Positions 1,801 through 33,118 of a DNA stretch of 64,000 bases are shown here, piece after piece (position 1 is the stretch's first letter; each line of letters opens with the position of its first letter). The notes beneath the pieces were generated by a model, which did not search any database, was not told where the DNA came from, and saw only the letters and a program-made list of their open reading frames with translations. This stretch comes from Eutreptiella sp. 'Long Island Sound 2002' (Eukaryota > Euglenozoa > Euglenophyceae > Eutreptiales > Eutreptiaceae): the NCBI GenBank assembly GCA_964036045.1, contig OZ038384.1, positions 99,001,600-99,065,599 on the forward strand. Reading direction: 5' to 3'. A program made the translations under genes and the position numbers.

Positions 1801-2071
1801 TGCAAGCATTGATCCGGAGCAAGTCAGCGGGGATTACAGGCGGAAGGGGTACAGCGGGGGCCGGTCCTGGTAGGGACCTTCTTTACTAGCACGGATGGTC
1901 ACGGTCAGGCCTCCATACGTCGCTTCTACGTCGCTTCGGCAGCCGGCACACGTGGACGCCCCTTCCTCACGTCGGAGTACTCGCTCCCCAGGTTTGACGA
2001 AATCCCTGTGGCGTGGGACGTTGTGCTTGGTCTGTGTGGCTTCCGAAGACTTTGCTGGCGACGGCTGTCTT

Positions 2072-2577
2072 CTACCAACGCTTCCTCAACGGACACTTCG
2101 TTGGCTGGGACATGGGCAGGCACATGTGGTACAGATCCGGACCACATATTTTGCAGTGACCCGCTGCATCACGAGTATGCCGCCGGTCCTCTGGGATCTC
2201 AGGCATTTGAACAATAGGTGCCCACAGCGGCACCGTCATGGATAGTCGCTGCATGGCGTATGCTGCATCGTCAGCGGACTCTGAGCTCGTTGATCCTGCT
2301 TCACTCGCCGCGCGAAACTCCATGGACTCCCTTGGACTGGTTTCGAAGAGCTCCTGCAGCGTTGCTTCATCCAAATCCGTCCACCAGGGATCTCCTTCGG
2401 CTGCGCTGTCATTGGACTGGCGTTCGTACTCCACATGGCTTCGATTGCCGTCGCTCCGCGCCTCCTCAGTGGTTGCAGCGCTGCTTGACGCCCACTCGGT
2501 ACGCGATGACGAACTCGTTGCACGCGAATCTGAGCTGGGCAGTGGATAATTAAAGTCACCGTCGTCATCTGACATGC
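2072..2577 (-). CDS. Hypothetical acidic/Ser-rich ORF with a Cys/His cluster
   Basis: An ATG at 2577 on the reverse strand opens a 168-residue frame. It starts with an acidic MSDDDGDF segment, continues Ser/Glu-rich with a WWTDLDEATLQELF stretch, and ends with HCKICG followed by HMC and a further Cys, which could bind zinc. A second reverse frame (2147-1926) overlaps its end and reads like a continuation after a frameshift. I do not recognise the family. Composition looks protein-like, unlike the microsatellite just upstream of the ATG, which also extends the frame artificially. It could be an exon of a host gene or a fragment of a mobile element. Confidence 0.35.
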
Positions 2578-2624
2578 GGTGTGGCCTGGGCAAGGTGGGT
2601 GCAGGACGTGCCATTCCCTGACGA

Positions 2625-2785
2625 GGTCGGTCGGTCGGTCGGCCGGTCTCTTGGTCGATCGGTCGGTCGGTCGGTCCGTCGGCGCATCGGTCCGTCGGTC
2701 CGTGGGCGTCGGTCCGTCGGTCCGTCTGTCTCTCCGTCCGTCCGTCCTCCTTACCGCTCCGAACCCGTCCGTCCGTCCGTCCGCC
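2625..2785. repeat. GGTC/CGTC tetranucleotide microsatellite
   Basis: Long runs of GGTC units change into CGTC units across this stretch. It produces open frames of repeated Pro-Thr-Asp-Arg on the reverse strand and Val-Gly-Arg-Ser on the forward strand, which are artefacts of the repeat. Confidence 0.9.
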
Positions 2786-2799
2786 CGTACTCCATCTGT

Positions 2800-3430
2800 C
2801 AGTCGGGCCGTCCTGTAGAACCATTTATGAATTATTCTGTAACAGGGCCAGAGCCCTAGCCCCTTGGGTTCTCCTGGTCTTGGTGTTTGGCGACCATTTC
2901 CGTTGATCTCCGCTGCTGTTTTGGAAAAAACCTTGCTGATTTTATCCAAAAATCCTGCAAGCAACACCTGAACCCCGTCAGTGGCATGCACACTCAACAC
3001 GTTTCATGTCGTCTTTTGCATCCTTCTGTCGGAGGTTCATCCATACCCATTGTACGAATAATTCATAGACCCTTGCCGGGCCTCACCACTGGCGCATACC
3101 TGCAGACACGTAACATACAAAGAACAGGGCATGCACCTGGCCCTTTTCGTGACGATCTACTCTACAACATTCGAGAATCGTCTTTATAAATGCGGGCATT
3201 CGCAATAATTATAACTACAGCGTTCAAAAGGCTTTTTATGCTGTAAATCCGTGATTTTCCTAAACTCTGTAGTCAATGCTGACGGTCACATCGCTGATCT
3301 GGCGACCGCGTCTCGCGCTTTGTAGCGCGCTCTGTCTCCCAGCGCTCCAGCGCTCCAGCGCGCTGTGTCGCAAACAATAATAAAATACAAAATATGCAAA
3401 AGCATGTATAAAAAGTAGACAGAAAAAATA
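2800..3430. other. Unassigned stretch between microsatellite and element A
   Basis: I see no gene here. It contains GCGC-rich inverted words (about 3310-3360, CGCGCTTTGTAGCGCG) followed by an AT-rich tail at 3370-3440. This might be the truncated end of element A, but no LTR could be matched on the other side of A. Confidence 0.4.
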
Positions 3431-3501
3431 GAAATATTAAACACGTCGCTGACCATTACGAGGTCTGTGCCGAAGACGGTCGTGGGGCAGCCGGACCGGC
3501 T

Positions 3502-5973
3502 TCAGGTGGCCTTGTCACTGCTGCCCGTGAGTTTGTGCCGAACCAGAAGGTCCAGCACTCGAGTGACGTCCCTCTCGTGTGCCTCCGGGAGCTCCTCGTA
3601 GCTCATGCTGGGGTCCCCGGACGCGATGATCACGTCGTCCACGAAGGGGTCCGCACAGTCACGCACCGGCTCAAGCAGGGTCTCCAGCATCCGCTGAAAA
3701 GCCGCATTGCCGTTGGTAACGCCCATGGGCATCACCTTCCACTGGAGAGGTCCAAGTGGGGTGCTCATGGCTGTGCAGGCACGGGACTCCTCGGCGAGAG
3801 GCATCTGATGATAACCATGTTTCAGGTCAATCACCGTGAAGATCCTCCGCCGGTGTTGTTTTTGCAGCATGTCCTCAATGAGGGGAAGTGTATAGCTGTC
3901 ATGCTGCATTTGGGCGTTTAGGACGCGGTAGTCGACCACGAGCCGCCACTCACCGGCAACCTTCTTGGGGACGACGAAGCACGGAGAGGCCCATTCGGAG
4001 TGGCACGGCTCGAGCCTGCCTCTCTGGATGAAGTCACGGAGGATCTTCTCCATGGCCTGTTTCCTCTCGCCCCTCAGGGCAAACTCCCGGTGCCGATACA
4101 CACGGGGGTCCTGCTTCAGTCGTATCTTGGCCTCGCCATACGGTCCACGCACCGGTGGAGGAAACACAGGCTTTCCGCTGAAGAAGGTATCCCCATACTT
4201 CTGCTTCAGCCTGGCCCTCAATGCCTGAATCTTGGGGCAATCGTCGGACTCCGCCTTGGCTTTTCCGGGCACTTGAACCACGGAGCTTACTTGAGGGGTA
4301 GCTACTCCGCTCGTCTTCAGCTCAGGCGGTCTTCCCAGGTGGCCCAAAGGGCCATCTCTGGTCTTGCCTCGGAATAGATCGTTGTAGGTGGGTGGGTTAC
4401 CCCCGATTGGCTCGTCCTGGCTGGACAGGTGGTCCAGTACCCTCCTTACGAAGGTATCTCCATCGTAGGAACCAGAGACGATCGAGTCCACTTCCCACCA
4501 GGCTTTGTCCTGGCCTTTGCCCTCATGCTGGTTTCCCCAGTCGTGAAAGGGCTGATCCATATACCCCTGAACCAGATCCCACTCTTCTTCAGTGAGGGGG
4601 TCTTCCGACTCCGATTCTTCGATGTCAACAGGGGGAACCGCAAAGCATTGCCGCCACCGCTCCGCTATGATGCGGTTGACACAAACGAAGTCCGTGGCGT
4701 CGGCCTGATCAAGGCCCCCATCCACATAGTGGAATTCCGTTGGCCATCTCTGGGGTGGCATGGGCTGTCCCTTAGCGTCCTGATAGACACTCTCTCCACC
4801 CGGTAGGACGACCTTGTTTAAGGTCATGTTGGTCAATGAGGCTACCCAATGTCGGGTACTTTCCTCCTCGGTGCATCCCATAGGAACAACCAGCACTGCC
4901 TGGGAGCGGTCCTTGCGAATCTTCGCTATCGCTCTTGGAATGTCCCAACGGGGGCAATGGATCCACATCAATCCCTGATGCGGACCCCAGTGCTTCTTCC
5001 ACGCGGAGTCCTGGGCGCTCCAGTGCTTCTCACACACCCGCAGATGGGCGGAGGTTCCTGAAGAGAACGCATCCAGGGCCAGATCCGAAGCTCCCAAGTC
5101 CGCGACAACTCGGCTCGCCACTTCCGGCCTTACGCCGTACTCCTGGTTTGCAGGACCAGTTGGCTCAGTGTCCAGTGCGGCCACTTCGAGCTGATTGCGT
5201 TCGGGGTGGATCCATTGGCATTCCACATGGTGCTCAGGTGACGAAAGCCACGAGAGTTGGTCGTTCTGGTACAGGGTCATGGAGGCTTGGGCCGGGAGAA
5301 CGCCGGAGTCCGTCTCCATCATGAAGTCGTATCCAACGATCATGTCCCAGTCCATCTCGGCCTCGTAGAAGCGACCGTGCAGGAGGATTTCCTTGCTGAG
5401 GTCTGGGCGGCTCAGCTCACGATGGTTCACGAACTGCAGCCCGATGGCCGCTTCCTTGGTGCCTCCCACCATGTACTGGCCGTTCGCCACCTTCAGCCTG
5501 ACAGGTTTCCGACTGTCGGTCAGACACTCTGGCGGAAGTAGGCCAGCCTTGACCAAGCTGACTTGAGCTCCCGTGTCGACCAACACGTCGAAAACCTTTT
5601 CCACTTCCCCGCATAAGGCACGGACCTTAAGATGCAACTGCCGCTCGCGACCGACACGGCGCACGGCGTGCAAACTCAGGATCTCCGGCCGTTCCAGAAG
5701 CTCAACAAGCGACTGGTGCAGGTCGTGGACAATGGGCTCAGGCTGCCCATCTGCAGCATCCAGCTGCGGTCCGGGTGATCCTCCGATACTCTCGGATAGA
5801 TCCTGAAGTACAACAAACACATTCTTGGTCGCGAAGGACGGACGGGTGCAAGGGTTCGTGCCTTCACTTGCCCTCACCCCGCCTCCGCGACTGGGTGCCA
5901 GACCGGGCCTTCCGCCCGCGGCAGTCCCCTTGTGCTTATCGACTCCCGACTGGGATGGTTCGGCGCTTCCCAC
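3502..5973 (-). pseudogene. Element A pol: aspartic protease, Dam-like module, partial reverse transcriptase
   Basis: This 823-residue open frame encodes a retroviral-type protease at about residues 128-215 (DTGA at 133-136) and a Ty3/gypsy reverse transcriptase at about 615-790 (LVVDYRVLN, DLKHGYHQ, and FVDD as the YxDD box). Between them, at about 283-410, lies a module that reads LALDAFSS, then a Trp-rich segment, then a WIHCPRW / KIRKDRSQAVLVVP segment. That resembles the Dam-type adenine methyltransferase-like module known from DIRS-type retroelements, with HCPRW in place of the NPPY-type catalytic motif, so it is probably inactive. The frame is still open upstream to the TAG at 6027-6025. 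It terminates 40 or so residues after FVDD, lacking the thumb, RNase H and integrase. Confidence 0.75.
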
Positions 5974-6127
5974 GTCACCATCCTGCGACCGCCCTAGCTG
6001 GGGCCCTTGGCTGCAGGGGCTCCGCTAGGGGGCGTCGGTTGTGGAAGAAGGGGTGTTCTCCTCCGCATCAACCTCGTTGACGCCCTTCTTCCTTCTTTTC
6101 GCTGCGAGTAGGCTTCTTGTCCTTGTC

Positions 6128-6754
6128 CTAATTCTGGTTGTTCTGGTTGTTCTCCTTGTTCTTGTTGTCCGACCTGGGGACCCAGTTCCGCTTGATCTCC
6201 TGGATCTCCTTGGCCAACTCGGTCCCCTGCGACACCAGCTTGGAGAGCTCGTCCCTGTCCACCTCCACCTTGGCTTCCCGGATACCCGCGGGCGCACGCT
6301 TCTTCGACCCGTGCGCCTTCTTGTAAGCCTCCGTGTCGGCCTTGTGGACGGGGCATGTTCGGTGGTCATGGTTGAAGCCTCGCTTCCTCCCATAACACAC
6401 GAAACAGCCCTGAGGGTGAGCTCGTATGAACTCCCCAAAGGACAGCGGAGGGTCGCCAATGCGGCGAGGGTCCCTCTTCTCCTGCTTCCTCCAACCCTGC
6501 TGCAGGGGCTTCCAGTTTCCCGGTTTGCTCCCCGCGCTCAGGTTGTTGGCCACGAAGGCACAAATGGCCACTTCGGCGGGCTCATCGTCGTCGTCATCGT
6601 CGACGAGAGTCTCATCGCCGCCGGCTCCCGCTGGGTCCATGGCAGCTTCCCCGCCAGGTCCCTCGCCAACGTAGTTGACGTCGCGGTCGCCGGGCCTCAA
6701 CCCGCGGGTGTGGTGGAGGTTTCGGTACTCCTTGAGTACTTCCCGGCAACCCAC
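6128..6754 (-). pseudogene. Element A gag-pol junction with zinc knuckle
   Basis: The 208-residue frame overlaps the end of the gag frame and is shifted relative to both gag and pol, so an indel near 6750-6700 and a second near 6150-6128 separate them. It holds an Asp-rich run (DDDDDDE), then CFVCYGRKRGFNHDHRTCPVH, which looks like a CCHC-type nucleic-acid-binding knuckle, and ends Asn/Gln-rich. The sequence after the second indel continues in the pol frame up to the TAG at 6027-6025. In an intact element this would be the nucleocapsid end of gag. Confidence 0.6.
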
Positions 6755-8389
6755 TCCAGGATCTCGTCGCAGCTCATCTGCGCCGGGATGGGCTGCAGAC
6801 GGATGGTCTGGCCGCTCAACTCACACTCGTCAAGGCGCCACATCGCGGTCTTCTCGCGATCGCCCGAGACGGTGATGAGGAGAGCGTTCCGCAGGGAGTG
6901 CCGTTTGACATCCCGGGCCACGTTCTTCCTCGTCCATGCCACCACGTTCGTATGATACTCTTTGGGGAGCATCATCTTGACCGTGTGGTTGGACTTGGCC
7001 CGCTTGGATTCCTCCCTGGTGACCCTCTTGATCCATGCTTCCGGCAGCATGGAGAGCAGGCGACCCTGCTCGTCACCCTCGTTCCAGTCCTCCACGTTGC
7101 GGCGGAAGAGGGTGTATTTCTCTCGGAAGTCTCGCCAATCTCGTAGGCGGATCTCCCGTCCATCATGCTCAAGCTTGATGGACTTCCAGCGCTTGGCCGC
7201 CACCTGCGGAGCGTCCACCCGCTCCTGCTCGTTGAGCCACTTCTTGGCTTCCTTGAGGGTCTTGATTCTCCCCTCCTTGGTCGCCACGAAGTATAGCTCT
7301 CCGAGCACTTCCGGCAGGCGGTACCTGAACCGTCTGAAGACATATCTCTCCGCATCCGCGGGATCCATGTCCTCAGTGACGGTCAGCCCCCAATCGTCCA
7401 GCTTCTCCAAGAAGCGGTCGAGGTTGAGGGGGTTGCCATCGTACATGGGGGGCTTGATGTCCTTCAAGTCTTCCCAAACGGCGGCATCCGCGGCCTTAGA
7501 GACCATGAACGCCGGCCGCGAGGTCGACCGAGGTTCCCATCGGCCTCGCCCACGGACTCCCACGGCCGCCACGTCCATCTCATCCATGGAATCCCTGTGG
7601 CTACGCCGCCGTTCCTCCATGTACGCTGAACCTAGATGTTCACGCCGTACTCCTTCCATGTACGCATCCTCATCACGGCGCCGGCGGCTGCGTTCAGCGG
7701 CCTCCCGTCGTACACCACGCGGCGGGCTGATGTCGAACTCCTCCAGGTCCAGATCCAGGTCCTCACCTTCACCGACATCCCACCCCACGTCTCCTCTGGG
7801 GACCTCATCCCTGAGTCCACCATAACGTCCACCAGCCATTGGGATTGGCTCCGGGGCTGGTGCGGGGCGCCGGGGGCGTACCGGTGTCCGCGGTGGAGCA
7901 CGGCGGTTGCGGTGCTCCGCGCTGAGCCACTCATCACGCCAATCCTCACTGCCACTGCCGGGCGGCATGCGCTCGTTGCGGCGGCCCGCGCTGTGGTGAG
8001 AGGGGGCGGTGAGAGAGGGGGCACTGGCGCCGGGGCGACTCCTGGGGGCTCCGCCGGGGGCGTGGGGTCTGCCTGGACCTGGTCCGGGTCCCCAGCCGTC
8101 GTCCGACGAGCCAGACTCCAGGGGTGGGTGGTCGCTGCCGACGCTCCCACGGGCCTCCAGCGCGTCCAGCCTCTGCTGCAGGCCGCTGATGACCGTGTTC
8201 AGCTGCCTGGTCTCGGCCCTGGCGATGTCCAGCTCTCTCTGCGCGCGCGCGGCGACCTCAGAGATGCGGGTCATCTCGCCCTTGCCCGTGTCTACCTCGC
8301 GCTCGAGGAACTGGACCCTCCTGCGGAGGTAGACAATCCACCGCCAGGTGGTATCCGGGTCGCCGTTCCCTGGTGGGTCGTCGGGGTAC
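6697..8389 (-). pseudogene. Element A gag, 3' part (capsid-like region)
   Basis: The frame resumes at 8389 just beyond the composite insertion with PDDPPGNGDPDTTWRW. It continues with a coiled-coil heptad segment, an Arg/Pro-rich linker, and a helical domain containing PPMYDGNPLNLDRFLEKLDD, typical of retrotransposon gag (an Ile/Val-x-x-Phe-x-Gly-like start followed by helices). It ends at 6697. The apparent N-terminal 70 residues upstream (8613-8390) are translated LTR of the insertion and do not belong to gag. Removing 8390-14814 and one GGTAC copy joins this frame in phase with 14820-15178. Confidence 0.7.
8385..8389. repeat. Target-site duplication GGTAC (left)
   Basis: GGTAC immediately precedes the TGTAAAGG terminus at 8390 and is repeated at 14815-14819 immediately after the opposite terminus. 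Five bases is the usual length for LTR-retrotransposon integration. Confidence 0.85.
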
Positions 8390-8896
8390 TGTAAAGGGAA
8401 GCTCAGGACAGGACAGAACAAGGTTGGTTTCTTCTGTGGACCTCTGCATTTGGCAGGGTCAGGATTACAGCAATTATGTCTAATTTTTGTTTGTTGTGCA
8501 TGACATAGCCCCATATAAGTTATTTGCTGTGGTGCGTCGCAGATGCCGCTATTTGGGCACTGCAGGGCACGCGTGCGCACTGATTTGTGCATTGTTTCCT
8601 TTCTGAGAAGCACTGATTTTTATTATAAAAAGATCAGATTTTGTAGGATTTTAGCATGTTTACAGTGTATGTATTGTGCTGAGCGTCCATTATTGTTTAG
8701 GCCATGAAACGGCTTATCTGTTGAATCACTCCGTATCACCAAGTCAAGATTGATCAACTCATTTGATTTATTGCGTGCGGCAATTACAAGAAGGGCGTCG
8801 TTTCAAGGTTTTCAAAATGGGACTGCAGGAGATTCAAAATCAGAGGTTTGAAAATTCTGAGTACTGGCCGAAACAAGACTCTGAGGTCTTGAAATA
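8390..8896 (+). repeat. Element L 5' LTR
   Basis: The 507-bp sequence matches 11365-11871 in direct orientation with few substitutions. It starts TGTAAAGGGAAG and ends CTTGAAATA. A TATA box (TATAAAA, 8634-8640) lies 245 bp in. The first ~261 bp (to about 8650) are shared with the R LTRs; the remainder is unrelated to them. Confidence 0.85.
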
Positions 8897-9953
8897 TTCA
8901 ACAGATAAACACGACGTTTCTTTGCCTTTGCCTGTAGCTGCAGATGAGATCAATAAGAGTGAGGAGTGCAATCACAGGAGTCTACGGCCCGGCCGAGCCG
9001 TCAATCAAGACACCATCAAGGCGCCGTCCAGACCAGCGCCAGCCCCGCCCAGGACAACACGGCCGCCGCAGCGCCTTTCAAGTGGAGTAACAGAAGTGCC
9101 ACGATGTGCTGAAGCCGCCGCCATCACAGCAGTGCAACGACTCGTCGCACAGGAAGAACGAATAAGGCAAAGTCTCAGGTATGAGCAACAAGTCATCTGC
9201 GCGAAGAGGTACGCGAACTTTGGCCACGTTTTTCAAAAGCTCTATTGCCGGTTGTTCCAGCCTTCGTTGAATTCGGGGCAGACAAGTACGCCGCCGAACG
9301 AACTGAAATAGCCAGGGAAGCGCTCATTGAAGGAGCTGGCGGATTCCAGCAAGGCAACGCCAAAGAAGAACACCGCAAAGTCGAATGCGCCGCCGAACAA
9401 GAACAAAGCGTCTGAGTACTCAGGTGTGTTGGCGAATTTGGAGACCTCGTTGGAAAATTCCTTGAAGCGATCCTTAAGTGACCTCCGACGAGTTGTGGAA
9501 CTGTTGGGTAACTGTTCGCCCTCTGTGTCCGTCAGAACGAACAAATGGAACAAGTTCGTCAAGAAGCAAGAACCAAGGCCCGTTTCAAGTGTGACGAAGC
9601 GCCGGCAGAACGAATCCCAAGTGACTGAGTGCCGAACGGACGAGTTACAAGCGAGTTTGGATGATTTTGACGCGTGGACAGTAACCTCGGGAGATCCTGG
9701 TGGAGTTCAGCAGCGAAGGAGCTCCACAAATGAGTCGTCGAACGTCGCGAGGCCCAAACAAAGGGGACAGCGAGCAGGACGAGCTGTGCAGCGTCGCCGC
9801 GCTATAGCCAAGTTCTTTGAGGTATTAAACTCAATCCAAGGTCGCGCATGCCGAGGTACAAGCGAGAAGAAGATCGAGTGCCCTACGCGAGACATGTTGG
9901 GGCAGTCTGTGGTGAACTCCAAGGAGAACCAAGGGAATCCCTTCTTGGACTGA
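8817..9953 (+). pseudogene. Element L gag-like basic protein with an internal amber codon
   Basis: An ATG at 8817, inside the downstream part of the 5' LTR, opens a frame through 9953 broken only by TAG at 9309-9311. The protein has IKAPSRPAPAPP near its start, a helical segment ending KRYANFGHVFQKLYCRLF, a Lys/Arg/Ser-rich middle and, near the end, RGQRAGRAVQRRRAIAKF. The first and last of these motifs recur in the R protein (13373-14248), and the last also in the D-block ORF. The family is not recognised. By position right after a 5' LTR it is likely gag-like, and its basic motif suggests nucleic-acid binding (inference). Single-base reversion of the amber would give one ~378-residue frame. 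Confidence 0.55.
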
Positions 9954-9979
9954 GCAGTGCTCTTTAAAGCGCGCTGCTT

Positions 9980-10410
9980 TTGCCGTTGGCGCGCTGGCTG
10001 AACCGCAATGCCTTTGGTGTGCTCAACGAAGGGAGAGGCCTCCGGAAAATAGTGGATCATAACCATCAACAAAATGATCAACAAGTTCGGAAACTTCACC
10101 AAGACCTCATGGGGTTTCATACTTCGTTGAAGCAATCATACGACAGACTTGTGGAATGCGCAAGCAATGTAGACAAACAAACGGAGACCATCACCAACTC
10201 AATTTCGACATCAACAAGCATGCTTTGGCCATGATTCAACTACAAGAGGAGCAACAACAAGCCAGCTCTTCACATCAGGGGCCATTGGTTCAATATGGTG
10301 GAAATTTTCCACAAACACCACAAGATCAATTGATACCTCATCAAGAAGGGCCCCAAGAGTTACCACCACATCAAGATAGTGCAGTGGATAATATGGGAGT
10401 GCAACCGTGA
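9980..10410 (+). pseudogene. Element L second ORF, Gln-rich, frameshifted
   Basis: Two overlapping frames (9980-10234 and 10156-10410) together read as one protein with a shift around 10200-10230. The first part is helical with heptad-like spacing (VRKLHQDLMGFHTSLKQSYDRL); the second is Gln/Pro/His-rich (QLQEEQQQASSSHQG). Element R has no counterpart at the matching place, so this ORF was gained by L or lost from R. Function is unknown. Confidence 0.35.
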
Positions 10411-11364
10411 GCGTTGTTCAATTTGCGAGCGCTTGCAGCGCTTTCTTTGTCAGCTTTTGGCGCTGTGAGCGCCGTGTGGTATATATCTGCCACAGATGGC
10501 AGAATGTGATGTAAATTACAATGCATCCAAAAGTTGACTTTGTCAACGAGGTCTTTTTTGGCCTCTTTTTGGGCGCCAAGCGCCTTGTTTGCTGGCACTG
10601 ACATGTTGTAGATACTATTTTGGATCTGCAATGAGCAGTGGTGGGATACACCCTGCTTTACACTTTGAGTGAACTCTGGTTTACTCAGTTTTGCAATTCT
10701 GTTTTGCTTTGCACCTGCCTGCTTGTGAGCAGTGTGTCTTTTTTTCTTTTTCAGCTGCTTCTGTCTTGGAGAAAAAGCAGAGTGGTTTTCCCGTTTGTTT
10801 TTCTGCTTTTGTTGGAAAAAGCAGGGGTTTTCTTTCAGTATTTTTATACTAAATTTTATCTGTGCCATGAGCACCTCAGGTTGTGTGCCATGAGCACTTA
10901 TCAGGTTTTTACACCCTTTGAGGAGTTTGAGTGGGTATAGGTTGAAACACCACTTCACCACGCCCCTAGGGCACTGTTTTGTGACAGAAATCCCTTTCAG
11001 GAGGGTAAAGCTATCTATGGTATCAGTGGTATTCCACTAGCATGATCTGCACATAAATAGTAGCTGTTTTTACCTGGAATGGATAGAAATAGCCAGATCA
11101 CAGACAGTAATATCTGTATTGTACTGTATTGTAGGTTAAAGCCTGCATGTTTTGCTATTTTTTTTTCTCGGGTCAGCAACTCATTTGGGGAGTGCTGAGC
11201 CTGGGGGGGGAGTGTAAACATGCAAGGCAGCCTTTTGGGTGCTTGCGTTTTACACCCACCCAGCTCTGTCTGAGCTTTTCCCAGCCCTATGGTAAAACCC
11301 TTCGCACCCTTTTGTTTTGGGGTCTCAGCCACACATCAGGGTATTTGTGGGCTTGGGGGGGGAG
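10411..11364 (+). other. Element L non-coding 3' region with duplicated polypurine tract
   Basis: This region is homologous to 12374-13370 in inverted orientation. It has no credible frame. It ends in GGCTTGGGGGGGGAG directly before the 3' LTR, the expected polypurine tract. A second G-run with the same follow-on bases (GGGGGGGGAG then TGTAAA, about 11203-11217) lies about 153 bp upstream and mimics an LTR start. Confidence 0.65.
11355..11364 (+). promoter_or_regulatory. Element L polypurine tract
   Basis: GGGGGGGGAG abuts the 3' LTR start TGTAAAGG. The mirror sequence CTCCCCCCCC at 12374-12383 abuts the R 3' LTR, supporting a conserved plus-strand priming site. Confidence 0.75.
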
Positions 11365-11871
11365 TGTAAAGGGAAGCTCAGGACAGGACAGAACAAGGTT
11401 GGTTTCTTCTGTGGACCTCTGCATTTAGCAGGGTCAGGATTACAGCAATTATGTCTAATTTTTGTTTGTTGTGCATGACATAGCCCCATATAAGTTATTT
11501 GCTGTGGTGCGTCGCAGATGCCGCTATTTGGGCACTGCAGGGCACGCGTGCGCAGTGATTTGTGCATTGTTTTCTTTCTGAGAAGCACTGATTTTTATTA
11601 TAAAAAGATCAGATTTTGTAGGATTTTAGCATGTTTACAGTGTATGTATTGTGCTGAGCGTCCATTATTGTTTAGGCCATGAAACGGCTTATCTGTTGAA
11701 TCACTCCGTATCACCAAGTCAAGATTGATCAACTCATTTGATTTATTGCGTGCGGCAATTACAAGAAGGGCGTCGTTTCAAGGTTTTCAAAATGGGACTG
11801 CAGGAGATTCAAAATGAGAGGTTTGAAAATTCTGAGTACTGGCCGAAACAAGACTCTGAGGTCTTGAAATA
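11365..11871 (+). repeat. Element L 3' LTR
   Basis: This is a direct copy of 8390-8896 at the same length (507 bp), with TATAAAA at 11599-11605. It ends at the junction with the R 3' LTR. Confidence 0.85.
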
Positions 11872-12373
11872 CTTTTCAAAATCCTCCAATTTTGAACTCG
11901 TGTGCTTTCCTTTTCAAAATCCCGTCACTGAAAACCCAAGCGGACACGGCAACGAACGAATACAATACAAACCCAAGACTGATTGAAATCTTGAACTCTT
12001 TCACTGTATTCACAGATCCGTCAGTGTGTCCATACTGAGATCAAACGATCCCATTGCACACTATACAAACAATAGACATTCAGCAATGCATTACATACAT
12101 TAACACACGCTGAATCCTACAAAATCAGATCTTTTTATAATAAAAATCAGTGCTTCTCAGAAAGAAAACAATGCACAAATCAGTGCGCACGCGTGCCCTG
12201 CAGTGCCCAAAAAGCGGCATCTGCGACGCACCACAGCACATAACTTATATGGGGCTATGTCATGCACAACAAACAAAATTTAGACATAATCGCTGTAATC
12301 CTGACCCTGCCAACTGCAGAGGTCCACAGAAGAAATCAACCTTGTCCTGTCCTGTCCTGAGCTCCCCTTTACA
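11871..12373 (-). repeat. Element R 3' LTR
   Basis: The 503-bp sequence matches 14312-14814 in the same orientation. Read on the reverse strand it begins TGTAAAGGGGAGC, shares ~261 bp including the TATA box with the L LTRs, and then diverges completely. Confidence 0.85.
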
Positions 12374-13372
12374 CTCCCCCCCCAAGCCCACACATACCCT
12401 GATGTGTGGCTGAGACCCCAAAACAAAAGGGTGCGAAGGGTTTTACCATAGGGGTGGGAAAAGCTCAGACAGAGCTGGGTGGGTGTAAAACGCAAGCACC
12501 CAAAAGGCTGCCTTGCATGTTTACACTCCCCCCCCAGGCTCAGCACTCCCCAAATGAGTTGCTGACCCGAGCAAAAAAAATAGCAAAACATGCAGGCTTT
12601 AACCTACAATAATATACAGATATTATTGTCTGTGATCTGGCTATTTCTACCCATTCCAGGTAAAAACAGCTACTATCTATGTGCAGATCATGCTAGTGGA
12701 ATACCACTGGTACCATAGATAGTTTTACCCTCCTGAAAGGGATTTCTGTCACAAAACAGTGCCCTAAGGGAGTGGTGAGGTGGTGCTTCAACCTATACCT
12801 AGTCAAACTCTCCAAAGGGTGTAAAACCTGATAAGTGCTCATGGCACACAGCCTGAAGTGCTCATGGCACGGGAAAAACATAGTATAAAAATACTGAAAC
12901 AAAACCCCTGCTTTTTCCCAACAAAAGCAGAAAAACCAAAAAGAAAACCACTCTGCTTTTTCTCCAAGACAGAAGCAGTTGAAAAACAAAAAAAGACACA
13001 CTGCTCACAAGCAGGCAGGTGCACAGCAAAACAAAAATGAAAAAACTGAGTAAACCAGAGTTCACTCAAAGTGTCAAGCAGGGTGTACCCCACCACTGCT
13101 CATTGCAGATTCAAAATAGCATCTACAACGCAAAAGAAAGCAAAGGCACATGTCAGTGCCAGCAAACAAGGCGCTTGGCGCCCACGAAGAGGTCAAAAAA
13201 GACCTCGTTGACATACTGAAAATGTACATGCCAGCGAATCTAAATCAGATCCCTGCATATATGCAGCCCAAAAGGCTGTACACTGTGCAAAGCACAGTTG
13301 TTCACACAAAGCATAAGAAGGCGCTCGCAGCGCCAAAAGCTGTCAAAGTTGAGCGCTGTCAACGCCAACTCC
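12374..13372 (-). other. Element R non-coding 3' region with polypurine tract
   Basis: This is the inverted homologue of the L non-coding region, including the C-run (G-run on the reverse strand) next to the LTR and the second tract around 12520-12537. Substitutions and indels are frequent relative to L, so this is not a recent inverted duplication. Short open frames are not conserved between the two. Confidence 0.65.
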
Positions 13373-14248
13373 TTACGAGAAAGGATTATTCGTGTCCTCG
13401 CATCTTCGTGGTTGTACAGCTTGGCCCCACGTCTCGCGTGGTGGGCACGCTGCCACTTGTGAACTGGATCTCTTGCCCTGATACAGCCAAGTCCACTTTT
13501 TAGGTCCCACCATTGTCTCAAAAAGCTCGAGCAGCTTGACGGCTGCATGGCGCCGCTGCACAGCACGTCCTGCTCTTTGGCCGCGCCACCGTTTACTCGC
13601 ACTTTCCGTGTTCGGGTACCTGCTTGTTTGATTCGCGGTTCCTTGTAGGTTACGTTCATTTGCTTGGTCTCGTTCTTGATGACTTCGACTCCACGCGTTC
13701 TTGGAACTCCCACGTTGCAACTCCTCCCTTTGGCCTCGCAAAGCTTGTTTCTCTGAGACTTCGGTTCTCGTTGCATTCTCCACCTTGACTTCGTTCTGCC
13801 TTGGCGCCCACTTCACTTTTTCGGAAGCTACAAAACAATGGGAGAGACTTGCGTTCTCAAACTTGCGCTGTCTTCTATGCCCCATTTGTTCCATGCCGCT
13901 TGCTTGTGACTGATGACGGCTCAGTTCTTGCTCGAAGGCACATACCCTTTTTCCGAAGTCACTCAGCATTCTTTGTATCTCGATCGTGGACCTGCGCACT
14001 TCCTCAGTGGACTGCGCGTCGTCATCCTTGAATTCCTTCACTTCGCAAGGGGGCTGGTTGGAAAACAGTTGACGGAAGAGTTTTTGAAATTTATGTCCCC
14101 AGTTTGCAAAGAGTCGTGCACGGAAGAAGTCGGCAGTGTACCTGAGCTCATTTCTCAACCGAAGTTCCTCTTTTTCGAACTCTTGCAACGAAAGAGACGG
14201 CAGTGGCGGCGGCGAAGGGGCTGGTCTTGACGGCGCCTTGATAGCCAT
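13373..14248 (-). CDS. Element R gag-like basic protein (intact)
   Basis: The ATG at 14248 follows the R 5' LTR by about 64 bp and opens a 291-residue frame that ends NPFS-stop at 13373. It begins MAIKAPSRPAPSPP, then a helical part with ELRYTADFFRARLFANWGHK and FQKLFRQLF, a charged Gln/Glu/Arg-rich middle, and RGQRAGRAVQRRHAAVKL about 60 residues from the end. The L protein shares the N-terminal IKAPSRPAP, the FxxxFQKL-x-RxLF segment, the basic motif and the NPF ending. No known domain is recognised. Its place in the element and the lack of pol suggest a gag-like or RNP-type protein of a non-autonomous element (inference). Confidence 0.6.
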   Translation of the reverse strand: MAIKAPSRPAPSPPPLPSLSLQEFEKEELRLRNELRYTADFFRARLFANWGHKFQKLFRQLFSNQPPCEVKEFKDDDAQSTEEVRRSTIEIQRMLSDFGKRVCAFEQELSRHQSQASGMEQMGHRRQRKFENASLSHCFVASEKVKWAPRQNEVKVENATRTEVSEKQALRGQREELQRGSSKNAWSRSHQERDQANERNLQGTANQTSRYPNTESASKRWRGQRAGRAVQRRHAAVKLLELFETMVGPKKWTWLYQGKRSSSQVAACPPRETWGQAVQPRRCEDTNNPFS

Positions 14249-14311
14249 GGGGTGTGATCTGCAGTAACCTTGGGTTTGGCGGTCGTGACGATCTTTTGGG
14301 TCGTTTGATCT

Positions 14312-14814
14312 ACTTTTCAAAATCCTCCAATTTTGAACTCGTGTGCTTTCCTTTTCAAAATCCCGTCACTGAAAACCCAAGCGGACACGGCAACGAACGA
14401 ATACAATACAAACCCAAGACTGATTGAAATCTTGAACTCTTTCACTGTATTCACAGATCCGTCAGTGTGTCCATACTGAGATCAAACGATCCCATTGCAC
14501 ACTATACAAACAATAGACATTCAGCAATGCATTACATACATTAACACACGCTGAATCTTACAAAATCAGATCTTTTTATAATAAAAATCAGTGCTTCTCA
14601 GAAAGAAAACAATGCACAAATCAGTGCGCACGCGTGCCCTGCAGTGCCCAAAAAGCGGCATCTGCGACGCACCACAGCACATAACTTATATGGGGCTATG
14701 TCATGCACAACAAACAAAATTTAGACATAATCGCTGTAATCCTGACCCTGCCAACTGCAGAGGTCCACAGAAGAAATCAACCTTGTCCTGTCCTGTCCTG
14801 AGCTCCCCTTTACA
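14312..14814 (-). repeat. Element R 5' LTR
   Basis: The 503-bp LTR lies at the right end of the composite, directly followed by the GGTAC duplication. On the reverse strand it begins TGTAAAGG. No TGG-type primer site follows its inner end, so the primer is unclear. Confidence 0.8.
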
Positions 14815-14819
14815 GGTAC
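14815..14819. repeat. Target-site duplication GGTAC (right)
   Basis: This is the second copy of the 5-bp duplication. Deleting the insertion plus one copy restores the gag reading frame of element A. Confidence 0.85.
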
Positions 14820-15178
14820 CCAGGGGGTCCTCCAGGAGGGCCTCCGCCGGGTCCGCCCGGTCCAGGGGGTCCTCCCCCGCCCGGTGGTCCGCCCCCAGGG
14901 GGTCCACTTGGTGGGCGTCCTCCAGGGGGTCCTGATGGTCCTCCGCCAGGGGGTCCCGGTGGGTCTCCGCCGGGTCGCCTCGGTGGGTCCGAGGATGGGC
15001 GCTTCCTCGTGATGCAGAAGTCCATGTCGTCATCCTCGTCCATGTCGCCCCACCTGGGCGTCTCGGTCTCGGAAGACTCCGAGCTCCGGTAGGGAGGAGG
15101 GAGATCCTCATCCTCACCTTCCGGCTCCATAGGGACGTCTCCGCCTCCTCCGCCCGTCCAAGCCACCACTTGACGATG
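14820..15178 (-). pseudogene. Element A gag, middle part (Gly/Pro-rich)
   Basis: This stretch reads in the same frame as the 5' part after a TGA at 15181-15179. It encodes an acidic segment and then a Gly-Pro-rich run that ends GGPPGY just before the insertion; the insertion then gives an artificial L-stop. The TGA is compatible with a single transition from CGA or TGG. Continuity of frame on both sides of the 6425-bp insertion shows this gag was one gene before the insertion. Confidence 0.7.
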
Positions 15179-16786
15179 TCAGCGGCCTCGTTCATCCCCT
15201 GTCGCTGGACCGTCGCTGGCGGTGAAGAAGGGGTCACTGTCGTGGGGGTGTCCGCCCGCTGGCCTCCGTGGCCTCTCGGGAGTCTTCCCCTTACCCTTCC
15301 TCCGTCGGTGGGCGGTGGGGCCACTGCTCCCACTGCTGCCCGTGTCGGCCTCATCCAGCGTGATCTTGGAGGAGGTGTCCCCTTCGAAAAGCTTTCGAAG
15401 GGTCTCCACTCGTGATCCTCCTGGGGGAGTCTCGCGGCGGAGTTTGGCCTCTGCCTCCTCCATTGCGGCGGCGGTGGCTGCGGCAGCCCGCACTTCGGCT
15501 TCCTCCCGAGCACGAGCCGCCTCGGCTTCCCGGGCCTGCTGCAGCCGCGCCTTCTGCGCTTCCAACGCCGCCAGCTCCGCCTCCGTCTTGGCCTTCTCCT
15601 CAGCGACCTTCCGTCGCGCGGCCTCGATGGCGTCCTTCTTGGCGGTGTCCGCCTGGGCCTTGGCCGTCGCTTCGGCGTGGGCACTTTCCTCCGCCTCCTT
15701 CTTTGCCCTCTCTTGGGCAAGCGCCTCTTCCAGCGCCCTCACCTCGGCCTCCTTGCAGGCAATGGCCTCCTGCGTCAGGCGGGCTTCCTCGTCGGCTGCC
15801 GCCAACTCACCGTTGACCTGGGCAGTCGCTGCCCCATGGGCGGCTACGGCCGTGAGTCCGGCCGCAATGGCCGCCACGGTCTGGGCGTGGATGGCCATGC
15901 CATGCGCCCACTCCGCAGCCTCCTCCTGGGCGATGCCGACGTCGCCTTCCACGGCAGCGCTGTGCTGCCTGGCCCGTTGCCGGGCAACCCGAAGGTTGCA
16001 GGGCACCCCACAGGCGCGCTCACAGGCGCGCGCCACGTCTCTGTCGGGAGCGACGCTGCTGCTGGAGCTGGCCTGGTCGGCCGGCATCCTCCCGCGGTGG
16101 GCCGACTCCACGTCGCTGCTGGGGCCTGCTGGGGCCTGCTGGGGCCTCAGGAGCAGCGGACGGGGCTTGGCCTTGGTCTGCTTGGCGACTTGGATGAAGT
16201 CGCCGAGGGTGGCGTGGCCGGGGTGATGACCACCATTGGCCCGTTGGGGACTGGGGGCTGGGGTTCCGCCCTTGGCGCCTTGGGCGGCTTCGGCGGCCAG
16301 GGAGTCCTGGTACTCCCGCCACTTCCGGTCCCTCTTTCTGTCCCCGGCGGACCGCTTCTCCTTCCCCGGAGACGCGCTGCTGCTGCCCTGCAGCCTGCGC
16401 TCGCTCCCCTGTTCCGGGAAGTTCTTTTCGATCATGTCCCACATGGAGACATTGATCGAGGCGCCCGACGGGTAGGCGTTGGGGTCCTCGTCCTCCTCAA
16501 TCCCGTCGGGTCGCAGCCCTTCGCCGGGCCTGTCCGGCCGGGTCCAGGTCCTCCAGCGCCTCTGCTGGAAGCGGAAGGCGAACCCTTCCGCCCGCAGCCA
16601 GTCCTCCACGGCCTGCAGGCGGTCGGGGGCGATGTCCGTGCGGAGCTGGAAGCTCCTGGGCATGCCGCCTTCGCACTGGGGGTGGCTGTGGCGGTAGTGC
16701 TGGTCCCATACCAACCCACGCAGTAGGTGCGCTGCATGGGGGTGGGGCCGCGGCCACGTCCTGCCCGCTTCTTGCCAGTTTACCAT
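15179..16786 (-). pseudogene. Element A gag, 5' part with Ala/Glu coiled coil
   Basis: The ATG at 16786 begins a 535-residue frame. The N-terminal part has SFQLRTDIAPDRLQAVEDWL and a Trp/Arg-rich segment, then a low-complexity linker, then about 180 residues dominated by Ala, Glu, Lys and Arg (about residues 290-450), predicted to be a long coiled coil. It ends at the TGA at 15181-15179 and the same frame continues beyond. The product is unlike standard short gypsy gags and is assigned to gag by position upstream of the capsid-like domain. Large forward-strand open frames over this region are antisense shadows of the Ala/Glu-rich coding. Confidence 0.6.
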
Positions 16787-17193
16787 GGCAGCGGGGGGCG
16801 GACTTGGTCTTGAGGTCCTTGGTGTGCACTCGTTCCACTCAACGAACTGGTGGTGGTTGTTGAGGCGGGTGCTGCAGCACTGGATTGGAAGTGCGGCTGG
16901 TGCTGGTCAGCCGGTGGTTGTGGAGGTGGTTGACGCGGCCTTGCTGGTCGGCCGATGGGTCTGGTCTGTGAACCTCCTTCACAGTCGCGGCGCGGTCAGG
17001 GCGATGCTCTGGACGGCGCTGCGGGCTCCGTGACGAACTCGGCGCTGTCGCTGGGCGGCGCTGCGAGCCGCTGCGCTGCGCTGCGAGGTGCTGCGCTGCG
17101 CTGCAAGCTGCGAGCTGCTGCGCCGCGCTGCTCGGGGTTGCTGGCCCCGAGTGGCACGCGAGGGCTGGGTAACCCCGCGGCGGTGAAACACTT
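16787..17193. other. GC-rich leader of element A with CTGCG repeats
   Basis: This lies upstream of the element A gag on the reverse strand. Short CTGCG/CGCTG repeats occupy about 17050-17140. No LTR or primer-binding site could be recognised with confidence; a 5' LTR may have been truncated by repeat E copy 2. Confidence 0.4.
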
Positions 17194-20070
17194 TTGACGT
17201 GTTCCCGTGGGGGGCCGGCCACGGGACGCTGCGGTGGACACGCGCAAGTGAGCAGGCAGGCAAAGCACTACGCTCACAGGGGCATCAATGCGCTCATGTC
17301 ATGTGACAAAGCGTTTCAGGATCCTTGCCACTCTGCAACAAGGAAACGAAAGTATGTACAGCAACACATCAGGATATGTACACATGGGGTTAAGACTGGA
17401 CTGGGGTAAGGGCATCACAGGACAATAGACACTCAGTCCTAACTCATATCCCAATCCCAGGTCCGACCCTCTCAGTGGCTGGTGGGGGCGGGGGCTCAAA
17501 CACAACCCATGCCCTGCTCAGTCCGGACCCTGAAACCCTGCCAATAGGGGGGGTGTATCGCCCAGCCACAGGCGAGTTCCTGGAAACCAAGAGGCTCCAA
17601 GGCCAACCGACAGTGGCTCCCAATGCTCCCTTAAAGGGAGGTCCGAACTCCACTCTGAGCGAGAGATATGGCCCCGCCATTATCCCTCAGGAGTTGGTAG
17701 CTGAAAATGGGCTGTTTCAGCCCAAACTGATATTAGCTCAAAAATCTCCAAAATTGACCTCTCGTCTGGACCCGCCAGAGGTAGGGACGAGGCAACTGAC
17801 CCTATGCCCTTCGAGCACGAACTCTCTGGAGCCCTCACCCATTTTGGCTCCCTCTGAGGTCCCGGCATCAGGGCACCACGTGTTCGTCGAGTGGGGTCAT
17901 GATGCCAAAATCACCAAATTCGGCGTCATTCCCACGCGCGGCTCGCCCGGCCAGGGCAAGGCCAATGGCTCACAGGTTAGGAGGCAGGACCTAGGACTCA
18001 TATCTGAGTGTACAACTTGGAATTAGGTCCGGGCTCCCTGTGGGCAGAGAGAAATGGGGCCGCCAATTGACCACACTGAGGGGTGAAATTGAGGTCCCAA
18101 AATGGGGTCATTTTGGCTGCTCAAAATGAGCCAAAATCAGGGGTGCTCCCAATAGTATATCTCCACGCCGGCTTGGAGATCGGATCCGCCATTCCATATG
18201 CGATCCACTGGGAGTCCAACAAAGACTCCCATGCCCTTGGCTCTCAAAGATCTCCATGCCACTCGGTGTGGTGACGATCCCAATTGGGTCCACAAATGCC
18301 AAAATGGCAAAATTGCCCACACTCACTTTGGGCTAGCGCCTTGACGAAGGTTGCTCCGCTTCGCCCACGTGGTGTGTGAACCATGGGGACCAATATACAT
18401 AACACGCATGTCATATATGGTCCATTGGTCCATGCGTCCGGCGTGCACGGGTGGGCTCAACATAGTGCACGGCGGGCAGCAAAAGTGGAAAATTGCTCAA
18501 AGTGGTCAAAAATGCGCACACTCATGGTTAGGGCAAATGAGGCACATGCCCGACTTGGTCCGGAGTGTGCCATAGGATTGGTATCAAGTCATATGTGTCC
18601 AACATATCTTTTGGGCGTCGCCCAACACCTCCGGTTTTGGGAATGGCGGGGTCGCCAAGTGAGCCCATGATTTGGGATAGTCCCAAATTGCCAACATGGT
18701 GGCCACGGTGTGCCAAGCCCAAGAGGAGTTTTTCGCCGGGTCCAAGATATGTTGGGCACCGAAGTATGTACCCTCATATCATACTTGGGTCATGATGTCA
18801 ATTGAGCGCAACGTTGAAATACACGGTCGCCACTTGACATCATGACGGGCCAAAAACGGCAAAATTGGCACAAAGATACACAAAAGTGCTTTGAAAGGTG
18901 CACAATTATATTATAATATCTTCGGCTTGGATCGTGCAATCAACTAATCCTTCTAAACATAATGACTTGACACCAATGACCTTTGATTCCACATATGTGC
19001 TCCACTTGGGGCGCTTTGAAAGGTCACGAGCGCTACTTCCCAAGTGGGCACATGAAATTATGGAAAATTGCAAAACACACACCTTGCTCCCAACGCATCG
19101 CTTCGGGATCGCCACACAAGCTTCCCTTCACGAAGGTTAGGCATGCAATTGATCGTAGGGAGTATGGAGAAGGGGCTTGCACAATATGAGGTCCATTGGC
19201 GGGTTTGGCTTGGAGCGATGGACTCGCCAAATGGGCACGCAACAAAACACAAGGCACATACTCCATATTGCCCAAAAAGGTAGCTCCCCCCACGATATGT
19301 CATGCCCCTCCAAGGGCATAACTTTGTGTCAATTGCTCATAGGAACTCAAGGAGAGTTCCTATGCAACACCAACACTTGCGCGCTACACTCGAAAGTTAT
19401 CTTAACGCACGCAATATCATGGCCAAAGAGTTATAACACAAACTCTACCCTCTTGACCATGATCCATTACACTAGCGCGCACGTGTGGAGACGCAAGGCA
19501 TATAATGCTTCCTAAATTACGTCGGGAGTATTGTGAATACATCCCACGTTTCCTAATTGTCATTCCTCGCATGCGGCACGAGATATGACCCTCACAAGTG
19601 GCCTCACGAATCAACTTTGTTTTGCCCATATCTCTAAGACAAATGGAGGGCAAGACAAAAGGAAAGTTGATTCGTGCATAGGGAAGCACGTAGGTCCACT
19701 CGAAGGAGGTCAAATCAAGTGCGGGGATGTCGAAGTCGAAAATCCGATTTCGACATCCTGAAAAATTCGGATTAAGGTTGCGAGTGTAGAATGTGAAAAT
19801 TGCGGATGCATCAATGCAGTTGCTGAAGACTTTAGAGCCTTCGTCACGGATAGCGCTAGAATTTCCATTATTAACAGTTAAACTGGCGGTTACGGTAAAG
19901 TCGCGATCCAACCGCCAGCTGCCCAAACAGTGAATATCAGAACGGAAGCGTAAAAATTGACGGAAACAGTATGAAAATAAAACCCTGTTGGTTCCTGATA
20001 TTCTGATATATAGATCTCCGCTGGCGGTGCATCGGTTGCCGATGCGGGGCTTCACGGCACGGAACACGCT
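17194..20070 (+). repeat. Dispersed repeat family E, copy 2
   Basis: It begins TTGACGTGTTCCCGTGG. Positions 17194 to about 18450 match 60020-61262 in the same orientation at roughly 90% by eye. Positions about 19290-19725 match the start of the window in inverted orientation. The sequence is rich in short GGTCATTTTGGC-like words. There is no conserved coding frame. The longest frame (19417-20067 reverse) is not kept in the other copy. The right edge is approximate; type unknown. Confidence 0.65.
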
Positions 20071-26669: not shown

Positions 26670-26969
26670 TGTTGTGGTTTGTTTCTTGGGAACTCGACTG
26701 CACTCCTGTGCCTCTTTGTTTCTCAAAATCCGAAATCCAAAATCCCAATCGACAAACCTCGCAGGATCTTTAGACGGGGCACCAATAATAACACAATCTC
26801 GAAGACATAAACCCTGTTCAAAGATCGAAGTACCTTACAGCGCTCATTCACAGTTGGCATTCGATGCTTCTTTATTATTCACAGACTGTCAGCGCGATTG
26901 CGACTGCGACTTGCGATTTGCGCGCTGTTGTGCTGCGCTGTTGCGCTGCTGCTGTTCGAAGCCATAACA
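26670..26969 (-). repeat. Element B 5' LTR
   Basis: The 300-bp segment reads TGTTGTGG at its left and CCATAACA at its right, giving TG...CA ends with an imperfect inverted repeat. The right end abuts an in-frame codon of element C. No second copy was found on the left of element B. Confidence 0.7.
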
Positions 26970-32359: not shown

Positions 32360-33003
32360 AACTTTTTCCAAAAGTTTTCGTCGCACGCCGGCGACTTTTG
32401 AGGAATGCCCCATCGAAGGGACATCATTCACGGTACATTACACTGTTTTTCAAGGGTACCTACAGTGTGATAGGCTTCTATGAAGTGATGAGGATGTTTT
32501 TGGTAAGTTTAATGCATTTTCTGAGGTAATTTTGGGAATATTTGAGCCTTTTTCCTTGGTCCTACTAGCTTGATCAACTAGTACTCCAGGGGGGAGTAAG
32601 AAAAAGTCACTGCCATGTCTTTCTTGGAGGGCTTGATCCAGGCCAAGCCCCCCTTAAAACCCTTTTGTTGATGCTAAGACAAACTTAAGTGTTTTTATCT
32701 CTCTTTTGTTGCCTAAAGTACACTTTCTCAAAGTAACTAGGGTTGTGACCCTAGCCCCCCCATGAAGTTCACCCCTACCACTCAACTGAGCGGAGGTACC
32801 TTCCTTCATGGAGGACATACCAAAATAAAACAGGCATTTCATGCTTGTTGGCCTTGGAGGTTAAGCCTAAGTGGTCTTCCACCCCAAGACCCCTATACTC
32901 AATTGTTTCTACCACTTATTGTGGTCCTACTTTGTAACTGTTTCTGAATTCAGTTGCTTGCCCAAGTCATTTTCTGTGTGGTCCTGACGTCTATACCTTT
33001 TTC
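32360..33003. other. Intergenic stretch before block D1
   Basis: Nothing recognisable is seen. Short frames lack conservation and no repeat from elsewhere in the window was matched here. Confidence 0.5.
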
Positions 33004-33118
33004 TTTTTTGCAACACCCTGTGTATCAATGTATGCAATTGGTATGCAGCACAATGTATGCCTTTTTGACTTCGGCGAGGAGGTTGAAAATCATGCAGACA
33101 ATTTCATCAACCCCTCAG

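What the first reader, a model, noticed from the sequence alone, without database searches (positions are those of the whole stretch)
8390..14814. Two distinct LTR elements fused tail to tail and sharing one target-site duplication
The composite has U3-type ends on both sides (TGTAAAGG...CCTTTACA) and one 5-bp duplication, GGTAC. Inside are two full LTR pairs in opposite orientation whose 3' LTRs touch at 11871 with 1-2 shared bases. A normal integration gives one element per duplication. The two halves are homologous but diverged, so this is not a simple inverted duplication. Possibilities are joint packaging and end-joining of two cDNAs before integration, template switching, or a stable bipartite mobile unit that moves as a pair.
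Basis: partly seen in the sequence, partly recalled or inferred. Interest (0 to 1): 0.88.

Follow-up and report, generated by a model that had tools for sequence, protein, structure and literature searches.

The report
Two retroelements fused before one insertion
Two different jumping retroelements were joined end to end and entered the genome as one piece, and their relatives in the same genome show that this family often finishes its right end by attaching a borrowed piece before inserting.

Summary
Confirmed: 8390-14814 holds two LTR elements, L (+) and R (-), joined tail to tail inside one 5-bp duplication, GGTAC. Without the insert a host frame runs open through the site, so it entered in one step. 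The junction GAAA-TA-CTTTTC shares one TA of the two LTR ends. The exact junction occurs only here and in a near-identical duplicate contig. L and R elsewhere have their own duplications, so they are not a stable pair.

Unexpected: the fusion extends the family's ordinary way of ending. Many other copies do not stop at the LTR end: the U5 stump carries 4-42 nt of the tail of an internal 42-bp cassette (polypurine tract, TGTAAAC..TTTTACA), then the duplication. In scripted tests 36 of 48 right ends finish in CA plus the expected duplication; wrong duplications gave 15 of 1172. Five other tail-to-tail composites each have one duplication. Three unlike R-U5 types carry 10-12 nt complementary to the bases just after their LTR, as in Tf1 self-priming.

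Best reading: before integration, U5 ends are joined to DNA with a TGTAAA-type end; here L and R capped each other. Enzyme, autonomous partner and host are unidentified; some copies (at least seven without duplication, one bare U5) do not fit.

The parts
8385..8389 (.). left copy of the 5-bp target duplication GGTAC
8390..8896 (+). L 5' LTR, TG..TA
8714..8725 (+). L self-primer candidate TTATCTGTTGAA (LTR bases 325-336); second copy at 11689-11700
   Evidence: 12-nt exact complement of the first 12 nt after the LTR; 0 of 400 shuffles
8817..9311 (+). start of the L ORF: begins inside the LTR, crosses the LTR end; stop at 9309-9311 in this copy, relatives are 378-392 aa
8897..8908 (+). L primer-binding site TTCAACAGATAA
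11203..11212 (+). L first polypurine tract (PPT1)
11213..11254 (+). L 42-bp terminal cassette TGTAAAC..TTTTACA
   Evidence: its 4-42 nt tail caps 38 listed right ends of other copies; coordinates
11355..11364 (+). L second polypurine tract (PPT2), next to the 3' LTR
11365..11871 (+). L 3' LTR
11870..11871 (.). shared TA at the tail-to-tail junction
11870..12373 (-). R 3' LTR
12374..12383 (-). R second polypurine tract (PPT2)
12484..12525 (-). R 42-bp terminal cassette, identical to that of L
12526..12535 (-). R first polypurine tract (PPT1)
13373..14320 (-). R ORF (315 aa from a TTG; database relatives 96% and 86% identical); no Pfam family
14301..14310 (-). R primer-binding site GATCAAACGA; self-primer candidates at 14480-14489 and 12039-12048
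14311..14814 (-). R 5' LTR
14815..14819 (.). right copy of the 5-bp target duplication GGTAC

Best explanation
The composite is one integrase-type insertion of a DNA made beforehand by joining the U5 ends of two cDNAs, a full-length L and a full-length R. Shown: one 5-bp duplication around the pair, an uninterrupted host frame in the empty site, two outer U3 ends, and a junction at both LTR ends. Shown in relatives: many right ends are a U5 stump joined to a piece finishing in ACA, most often the tail of the internal cassette, sometimes a long inverted element. Inferred: integrase prefers TGTAAA-type ends and uses the U5 end poorly, so U5 ends are joined, by end-of-template jumps of reverse transcriptase or by host end joining, to a molecule carrying such an end; here L and R capped each other. 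Inferred: the two RNAs shared a particle, and minus-strand synthesis is self-primed as in Tf1.
For: GGTAC on both sides and open host frame across the empty site. Junction exactly at both LTR ends, sharing TA. Exact junction only at this locus and its duplicate contig. Five further tail-to-tail composites, each with one 5-bp duplication: A, B, C, D, F. Scripted test of right ends: duplication found right after an end in CA in 24 of 30 (wrong duplications 14 of 868) and 12 of 18 (1 of 304). 38 listed caps have a cassette tail of 4-42 nt, none longer; the U5 side stops 0-3 nt past GAAA/GAAAAG in 34 and 10-13 nt past it in 4. Self-complementarity of LTR and PBS in L, R and X. P0004 is L-like to about residue 287 and R-like for the last 108, which speaks for co-packaging and switching.
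Against: Seven copies (L012, L022, L098, L134, L144, L146, L156) have no duplication in the stretch searched and L132 looks like a bare U5 end with duplication ATGCG, so U5 may sometimes be used directly or be joined to chromosome otherwise. L084 has a 54-nt cap of unknown source. The R self-primer match (10 nt) is reached by 4 of 400 shuffles. No integrase or reverse transcriptase of the family was identified; preference for TGTAAA ends is inferred. Joint overlaps are mostly 0-2 nt, which does not separate reverse-transcriptase jumps from host end joining.
Confidence: 0.8

Rival explanations
1. Two sequential insertions at the same place, with the middle duplication and any spacer later lost.
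For: L and R also insert separately.
Against: A second insertion into the first GGTAC should leave GGTAC between L and R; none is there. The loss would have had to stop exactly at both LTR ends. Five analogous composites exist.
Confidence: 0.05
2. Recombination after integration between two separate elements in opposite orientation, with loss of the DNA between.
For: Tandem arrays in the family (L015, L016; L128) show that rearrangement happens.
Against: Flanks would carry two different duplications; here they match and the host frame is continuous. Breaks at both exact LTR ends would be a coincidence.
Confidence: 0.04
3. L plus R is a stable bipartite mobile unit that moves as a pair.
For: Shared U3, 3' region and cassette.
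Against: Exact junction only at this locus and its duplicate contig; of 24 protein-database hits to the junction frame only the window's own spans L|R; other composites have other partners and other breakpoints.
Confidence: 0.02
4. Assembly misjoin at 11871.
For: Reads were not available; C911 could be built from the same reads.
Against: A misjoin would not create matching GGTAC on both outer sides and an open frame in the empty site; two contigs agree; five analogous loci.
Confidence: 0.02
5. The caps are not appended: they are the family's original LTR right end (the cassette being a remnant mini-LTR), which copies have eroded to different lengths by deletion.
For: The cassette looks like a small LTR: PPT, TGTAAA..TTTTACA.
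Against: Deletions after insertion would not always keep both the U5 end and the last ACA; 5' LTRs of the same copies run straight into the PBS with no cap. Three loci kept 8-11 nt of PBS before the cassette tail in copies without tandem ambiguity (L017, L036, L160; L063 likewise with 6 extra nt).
Confidence: 0.15

Closest known systems
Template-switching complex LTR insertions of Triticeae, rice and maize (Sabot and Schulman 2007, PMC1950507, whole text read)
   Same: Two element bodies in one target duplication; proposed origin in reverse transcription of two co-packaged RNAs.
   Different: There both bodies point the same way and share a third, internal LTR, and the outer LTRs are nearly identical. 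Here they are tail to tail, each keeps both LTRs, and the outer LTRs have unlike R-U5.
Tf1/Tf2/Tj1 self-primed LTR retrotransposons (PMC4600332, PMC7175516; passages seen)
   Same: A 10-12 nt LTR segment is complementary to the sequence directly after the LTR.
   Different: L and R encode no reverse transcriptase that I found. I know of no cassette-derived right end in Tf1 (recalled, not searched).
ONSEN intra-family recombination in Arabidopsis (Sanchez et al. 2017, PMC5668417; abstract and outline seen)
   Same: Pairwise recombination between co-active members.
   Different: The abstract describes recombinant elements and does not mention inverted two-element fusions.
Split-direct-repeat elements PAT and Ngaro (A1-B1-A2-B2; PMC4157794, passages seen)
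   Same: Formal resemblance: LTR ... internal cassette ... LTR ... cassette tail.
   Different: Here there are 5-bp target duplications, the terminal repeat B2 has a different length in each copy, and 110 bp lie between cassette and 3' LTR.

Membership tests
LTR retrotransposon (integrase type), non-autonomous | pair of near-identical direct LTRs | tested here: met
   L 4/507, R 1/504 mismatches
LTR retrotransposon (integrase type), non-autonomous | constant short target duplication | tested here: met
   5 bp in the window and in 36 of 48 scripted tests, six composites
LTR retrotransposon (integrase type), non-autonomous | polypurine tract directly before the 3' LTR | tested here: met
   GGGGGGGGAG at 11355-11364 and 12374-12383
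LTR retrotransposon (integrase type), non-autonomous | LTR of the form TG..CA | tested here: not met
   5' LTR copies are TG..TA; CA appears only in the cap. I therefore call it LTR-type with an unusual right end.
LTR retrotransposon (integrase type), non-autonomous | encodes or is served by gag-pol with integrase | tested here: inconclusive
   no Pfam family above cut-off in the L and R frames; autonomous partner not found
Tf1-type self-primed element | LTR segment complementary to the PBS next to the LTR | tested here: met
   L 12 nt (0 of 400 shuffles), R 10 nt (4 of 400), X 11 nt (0 of 400)
Tf1-type self-primed element | mRNA 5' end lies at that segment and is cleaved to give the primer | not testable with these tools
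   no RNA data
Tf1-type self-primed element | reverse transcriptase of that lineage | not tested
   no reverse transcriptase of this family identified
Template-switching complex element (Sabot and Schulman) | two bodies in one target duplication | tested here: met
Template-switching complex element (Sabot and Schulman) | same orientation with a shared internal LTR | tested here: not met
   opposite orientation, four LTRs; same-orientation arrays do exist in the family (L015)
Split-direct-repeat (tyrosine recombinase) element | A1-B1-A2-B2 repeats with B2 identical to B1 | tested here: inconclusive
   B2 is only a 4-42 nt tail of B1 in 38 listed caps
Split-direct-repeat (tyrosine recombinase) element | integration by tyrosine recombinase without target duplication (recalled) | tested here: not met
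   5-bp duplications; a recombinase gene was not searched for

The most novel reading that the evidence does not exclude
A family of LTR retroelements whose integrated right terminus is not encoded at the end of the LTR. Each element carries a 42-44 bp terminal cassette (polypurine tract, TGTAAA..TTTTACA, CCCACCC) and builds its integrase-competent right end by appending a variable piece of it to the U5 end made by self-primed reverse transcription. When the cassette is not used, another cDNA with a TGTAAA end serves, which yields inverted composites such as this one.
Probability: 0.5. Interest if true: 0.85.

Novelty: new variant of a known kind. Interest (0 to 1): 0.7.

Why it matters
The right end of an LTR element is normally taken to be fixed by where minus-strand synthesis starts. 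Here ends look assembled from pieces, and two different elements can integrate as one. The genome thus keeps a record from which end recognition by integrase, co-packaging and cDNA joining can be read, and it warns that one target duplication does not imply one element. It may also explain how families swap R-U5 and coding halves while keeping U3 and the 3' region.

Tried and rejected
LTR patterns found nothing in viral contigs or genome contigs. Rfam gave no match in the window. Pfam gave no family above its cut-off for the two host and three L/R frames scanned. A tRNA primer was not tested: the bases after the LTRs of L, R and X do not begin with TGG, and self-complementarity fits instead. 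At first I read the L copies as ending in a bare LTR; comparing both flanks showed CA-ended caps. Four protein hits of an L variant (P0030-P0033, with VMGK) run from the U5 end into sequence that I cannot resolve into cap and flank from protein alone. Array E (C2:186138700-186146300) contains inverted R-U5 pieces, but I did not resolve its ends. Whether exact L|L and R|R junctions exist genome-wide is unknown: those patterns did not complete (L|L; R|R). The listing stops at the first 100 of 205 places. The autonomous partner and the organism were not identified.
Full report
What is there. The stretch 8390-14814 has outer ends TGTAAAGG and CCTTTACA and GGTAC on both sides. Inside are L (+, LTRs 8390-8896 and 11365-11871, 4 mismatches in 507) and R (-, LTRs 14814-14311 and 12373-11870, 1 mismatch in 504). 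Their 3' LTRs meet at GAAA-TA-CTTTTC. The 5' LTR copies end GAAATA and GAAAAGTA, so one TA is shared. TA is its own complement, so the joint equals two ends with TA overhangs annealed, or a 2-nt microhomology join.

One insertion. The host DNA looks like a gag-type frame of another retroelement on the minus strand (ORFs; the label is my reading, no Pfam family above cut-off). Joining the flanks with one GGTAC gives a frame without a stop over the 199 codons translated. The genome (2.28 Gb, 2205 contigs, unnamed) holds the exact junction twice, in C7 (the window) and C911. C911 bases 1-20000 match the window with 1 mismatch, so it is the same insertion. In the protein database the frame across the junction gave 24 hits: the window's own, 14 L ends with other sequence after them, 4 ends of an L variant, 3 L copies running on into the internal region, and 2 R frames; only the window's own spans L|R (by eye).

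Anatomy of L and R. The first ~300 bp of the LTR (U3) and the 3' region (10541-11364) agree at about 91-93%, while R-U5 and the 5' internal halves do not align well. Each element has two polypurine tracts. The first is followed by a 42-bp cassette, TGTAAACATGCAAGG..GCGTTTTACA, identical in L and R; the second by the 3' LTR. A related subfamily (L014) has PPT-TGTAAA..TTTTACA-CCCACCC with a different middle, 44 bp. The L frame starts inside its LTR and crosses its end; this copy has a stop at 9309-9311.

Priming. The 12 nt after the L LTR are the exact complement of LTR bases 325-336 (0 of 400 shuffles reach 12); the 10 nt after the R LTR match bases 326-335 (4 of 400 reach 10). A third element, X, found in composite C, has 11 nt at LTR bases 350-360 (0 of 400). 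The three R-U5 parts are unlike, yet each match starts at the first base after the LTR. This is the arrangement called self-priming in Tf1, Tf2 and Tj1 (PMC4600332, PMC7175516, passages seen).

Other copies. I examined 18 loci as stretches of about 10 kb (L011-L028), 33 further sites as 201-nt stretches (L031-L063), follow-up stretches for 28 of those 33, and 18 further L elements taken in listing order from the places: 69 loci. The first 51 were picked from the best matches to the L|R junction query and its halves. The duplication test was scripted for 30 loci: 14 of the 18 ten-kb loci (L011, L014, L016 and L023 left out) and 16 of 28 follow-ups (12 dropped because the U3 start or U5 end was not in the stretch). 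In 24 of 30 the left 5-mer recurs directly after a right end in CA; with duplications taken from other loci, 14 of 868. For the 18 L elements it is 12 of 18, control 1 of 304. By eye, outside the scripted hits: L160 (changed U3 start, GCAAG), L011 (CCGTC), L016 (CCCTC), L023 (ACTTC, end TTTTGCA) and L090 (CCCTG) also fit. Against: L012, L022, L098, L134, L144, L146 and L156 show no duplication in the stretch searched; L132 looks like a bare U5 end with ATGCG; L076 has its 5-mer without CA, possibly by chance. L082 is a tandem unit by its left flank, and L114 is composite D.

Right-end caps. In 38 caps that carry the cassette tail (25 L, 13 R; typed from outputs; other caps such as L068, L084 and L104 were left out) the tail is 4-42 nt and never longer, 42 being the exact start after PPT1. 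The U5 side stops 0-3 nt past GAAA or GAAAAG in 34 and 10-13 nt past it in 4, that is, after 8-11 nt of PBS. Joint overlaps are 0 (11), 1 (13), 2 (6) and 4 (1); 7 have 1-8 extra nt. Three of the 38 (L036, L053, L063) have no left flank and one (L082) is tandem, so their duplication is untested. Five L copies end simply GAAATACA.

Other composites with two outward ends and one duplication. A, C23:20742306-20745078, R LTR plus 9 nt of PBS joined to an inverted left part of L, AGTTT. B, C2:77493293-77494194, R LTR, inverted R piece, and a 3'-region piece ending at the cassette end, GATCC. C, C4:8122195-8127638, R without its 3' LTR joined to inverted X, CCCAC. D, C2:70317830-70322411, full L plus 28 nt of internal sequence joined to an inverted L piece that ends at the PPT1-defined TGTAAAC, CTTAC. 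F, C5:113028662-113032310, inverted cassette, L LTR, inverted L, GTAGG. A, B, C and D are 4 of the 69 loci above, none of them chosen for inversion. F was fetched because one search listed opposite-strand motifs close together. Inversions were not looked for in the same depth at all 69, so 4 is a lower bound.

How it works. The ends seen at these insertions are of three main kinds: PPT2-defined TGTAAAGG, PPT1-defined TGTAAAC, and the cassette end TGTAAAAC. The LTR's own U5 end lacks CA. I infer that U5 ends are poor integrase substrates and are completed by joining to a molecule with one of these ends. U5 donors that stop at the LTR end or within the copied primer suggest end-of-template jumps by reverse transcriptase; short inserts and inverted fragments also allow host end joining. 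In the window the donor for L was R, and the reverse. Protein P0004 is L-like to about residue 287 and R-like over its last 108 residues, which supports co-packaging and switching between the two RNAs. Why DNA should end exactly at the cassette end is not explained; CCCACCC downstream reads GGGTGGG on the other strand, a possible primer site, but this is speculation.

Comparison. Complex elements in one duplication are known in the same orientation (PMC1950507, whole text). My searches for tail-to-tail or inverted cases, template switching, joined cDNA and additional polypurine tracts listed none that I recognised as this; the library is open-access only, and I saw listings except where stated. 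The cassette-derived right end recalls the split direct repeats of PAT and Ngaro (PMC4157794, passages), but the 5-bp duplication does not fit that class.

Limits.

Noticed in passing
window 33001-40667 and 50891-60020: Large near-identical repeats: 36405-40667 and 55760-60020 (98%), 33001-35196 and 53682-55877 (98.6%), with 35200-36407 and 50891-52077 inverted (97%).
   Followed up: no
window 8817-9311: The L reading frame starts inside the LTR and runs across the LTR end and primer-binding site, so the 3' LTR also carries the start of the frame.
   Followed up: partly
protein P0004: Chimeric protein: L-like to about residue 287, R-like afterwards.
   Followed up: partly
L015 220-8389; L016; L014: Same-orientation arrays: L015 has three bodies and four LTRs in one duplication GCCTG; L016 two bodies, CCCTC; L014 ends in a second U3 type.
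   Followed up: partly
L128 (C2:186138700-186146300): Array of L units of about 2.7 kb, each with a short inverted R-U5 piece; ends not resolved.
   Followed up: partly
L144 (C4:18005683-18005833) and protein P0031: L U5 ends that run directly into sequence resembling the reverse-transcriptase frame at window 26898-29894, without a duplication found for L144; either the target or captured partner cDNA (by eye).
   Followed up: no
L084: R copy with a 54-nt cap of unknown origin ending GGACTACA, followed by its duplication CTGCA.
   Followed up: no
C911 (32,986 bp contig): Near-identical second copy of the window locus in the assembly, 1 mismatch in the 20,000 bases compared.
   Followed up: partly
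composite C, inverted element X (C4, about 8124572-8127638): Third member with shared U3 and 3' region but its own R-U5 and internal half; LTR about 556 bp.
   Followed up: partly
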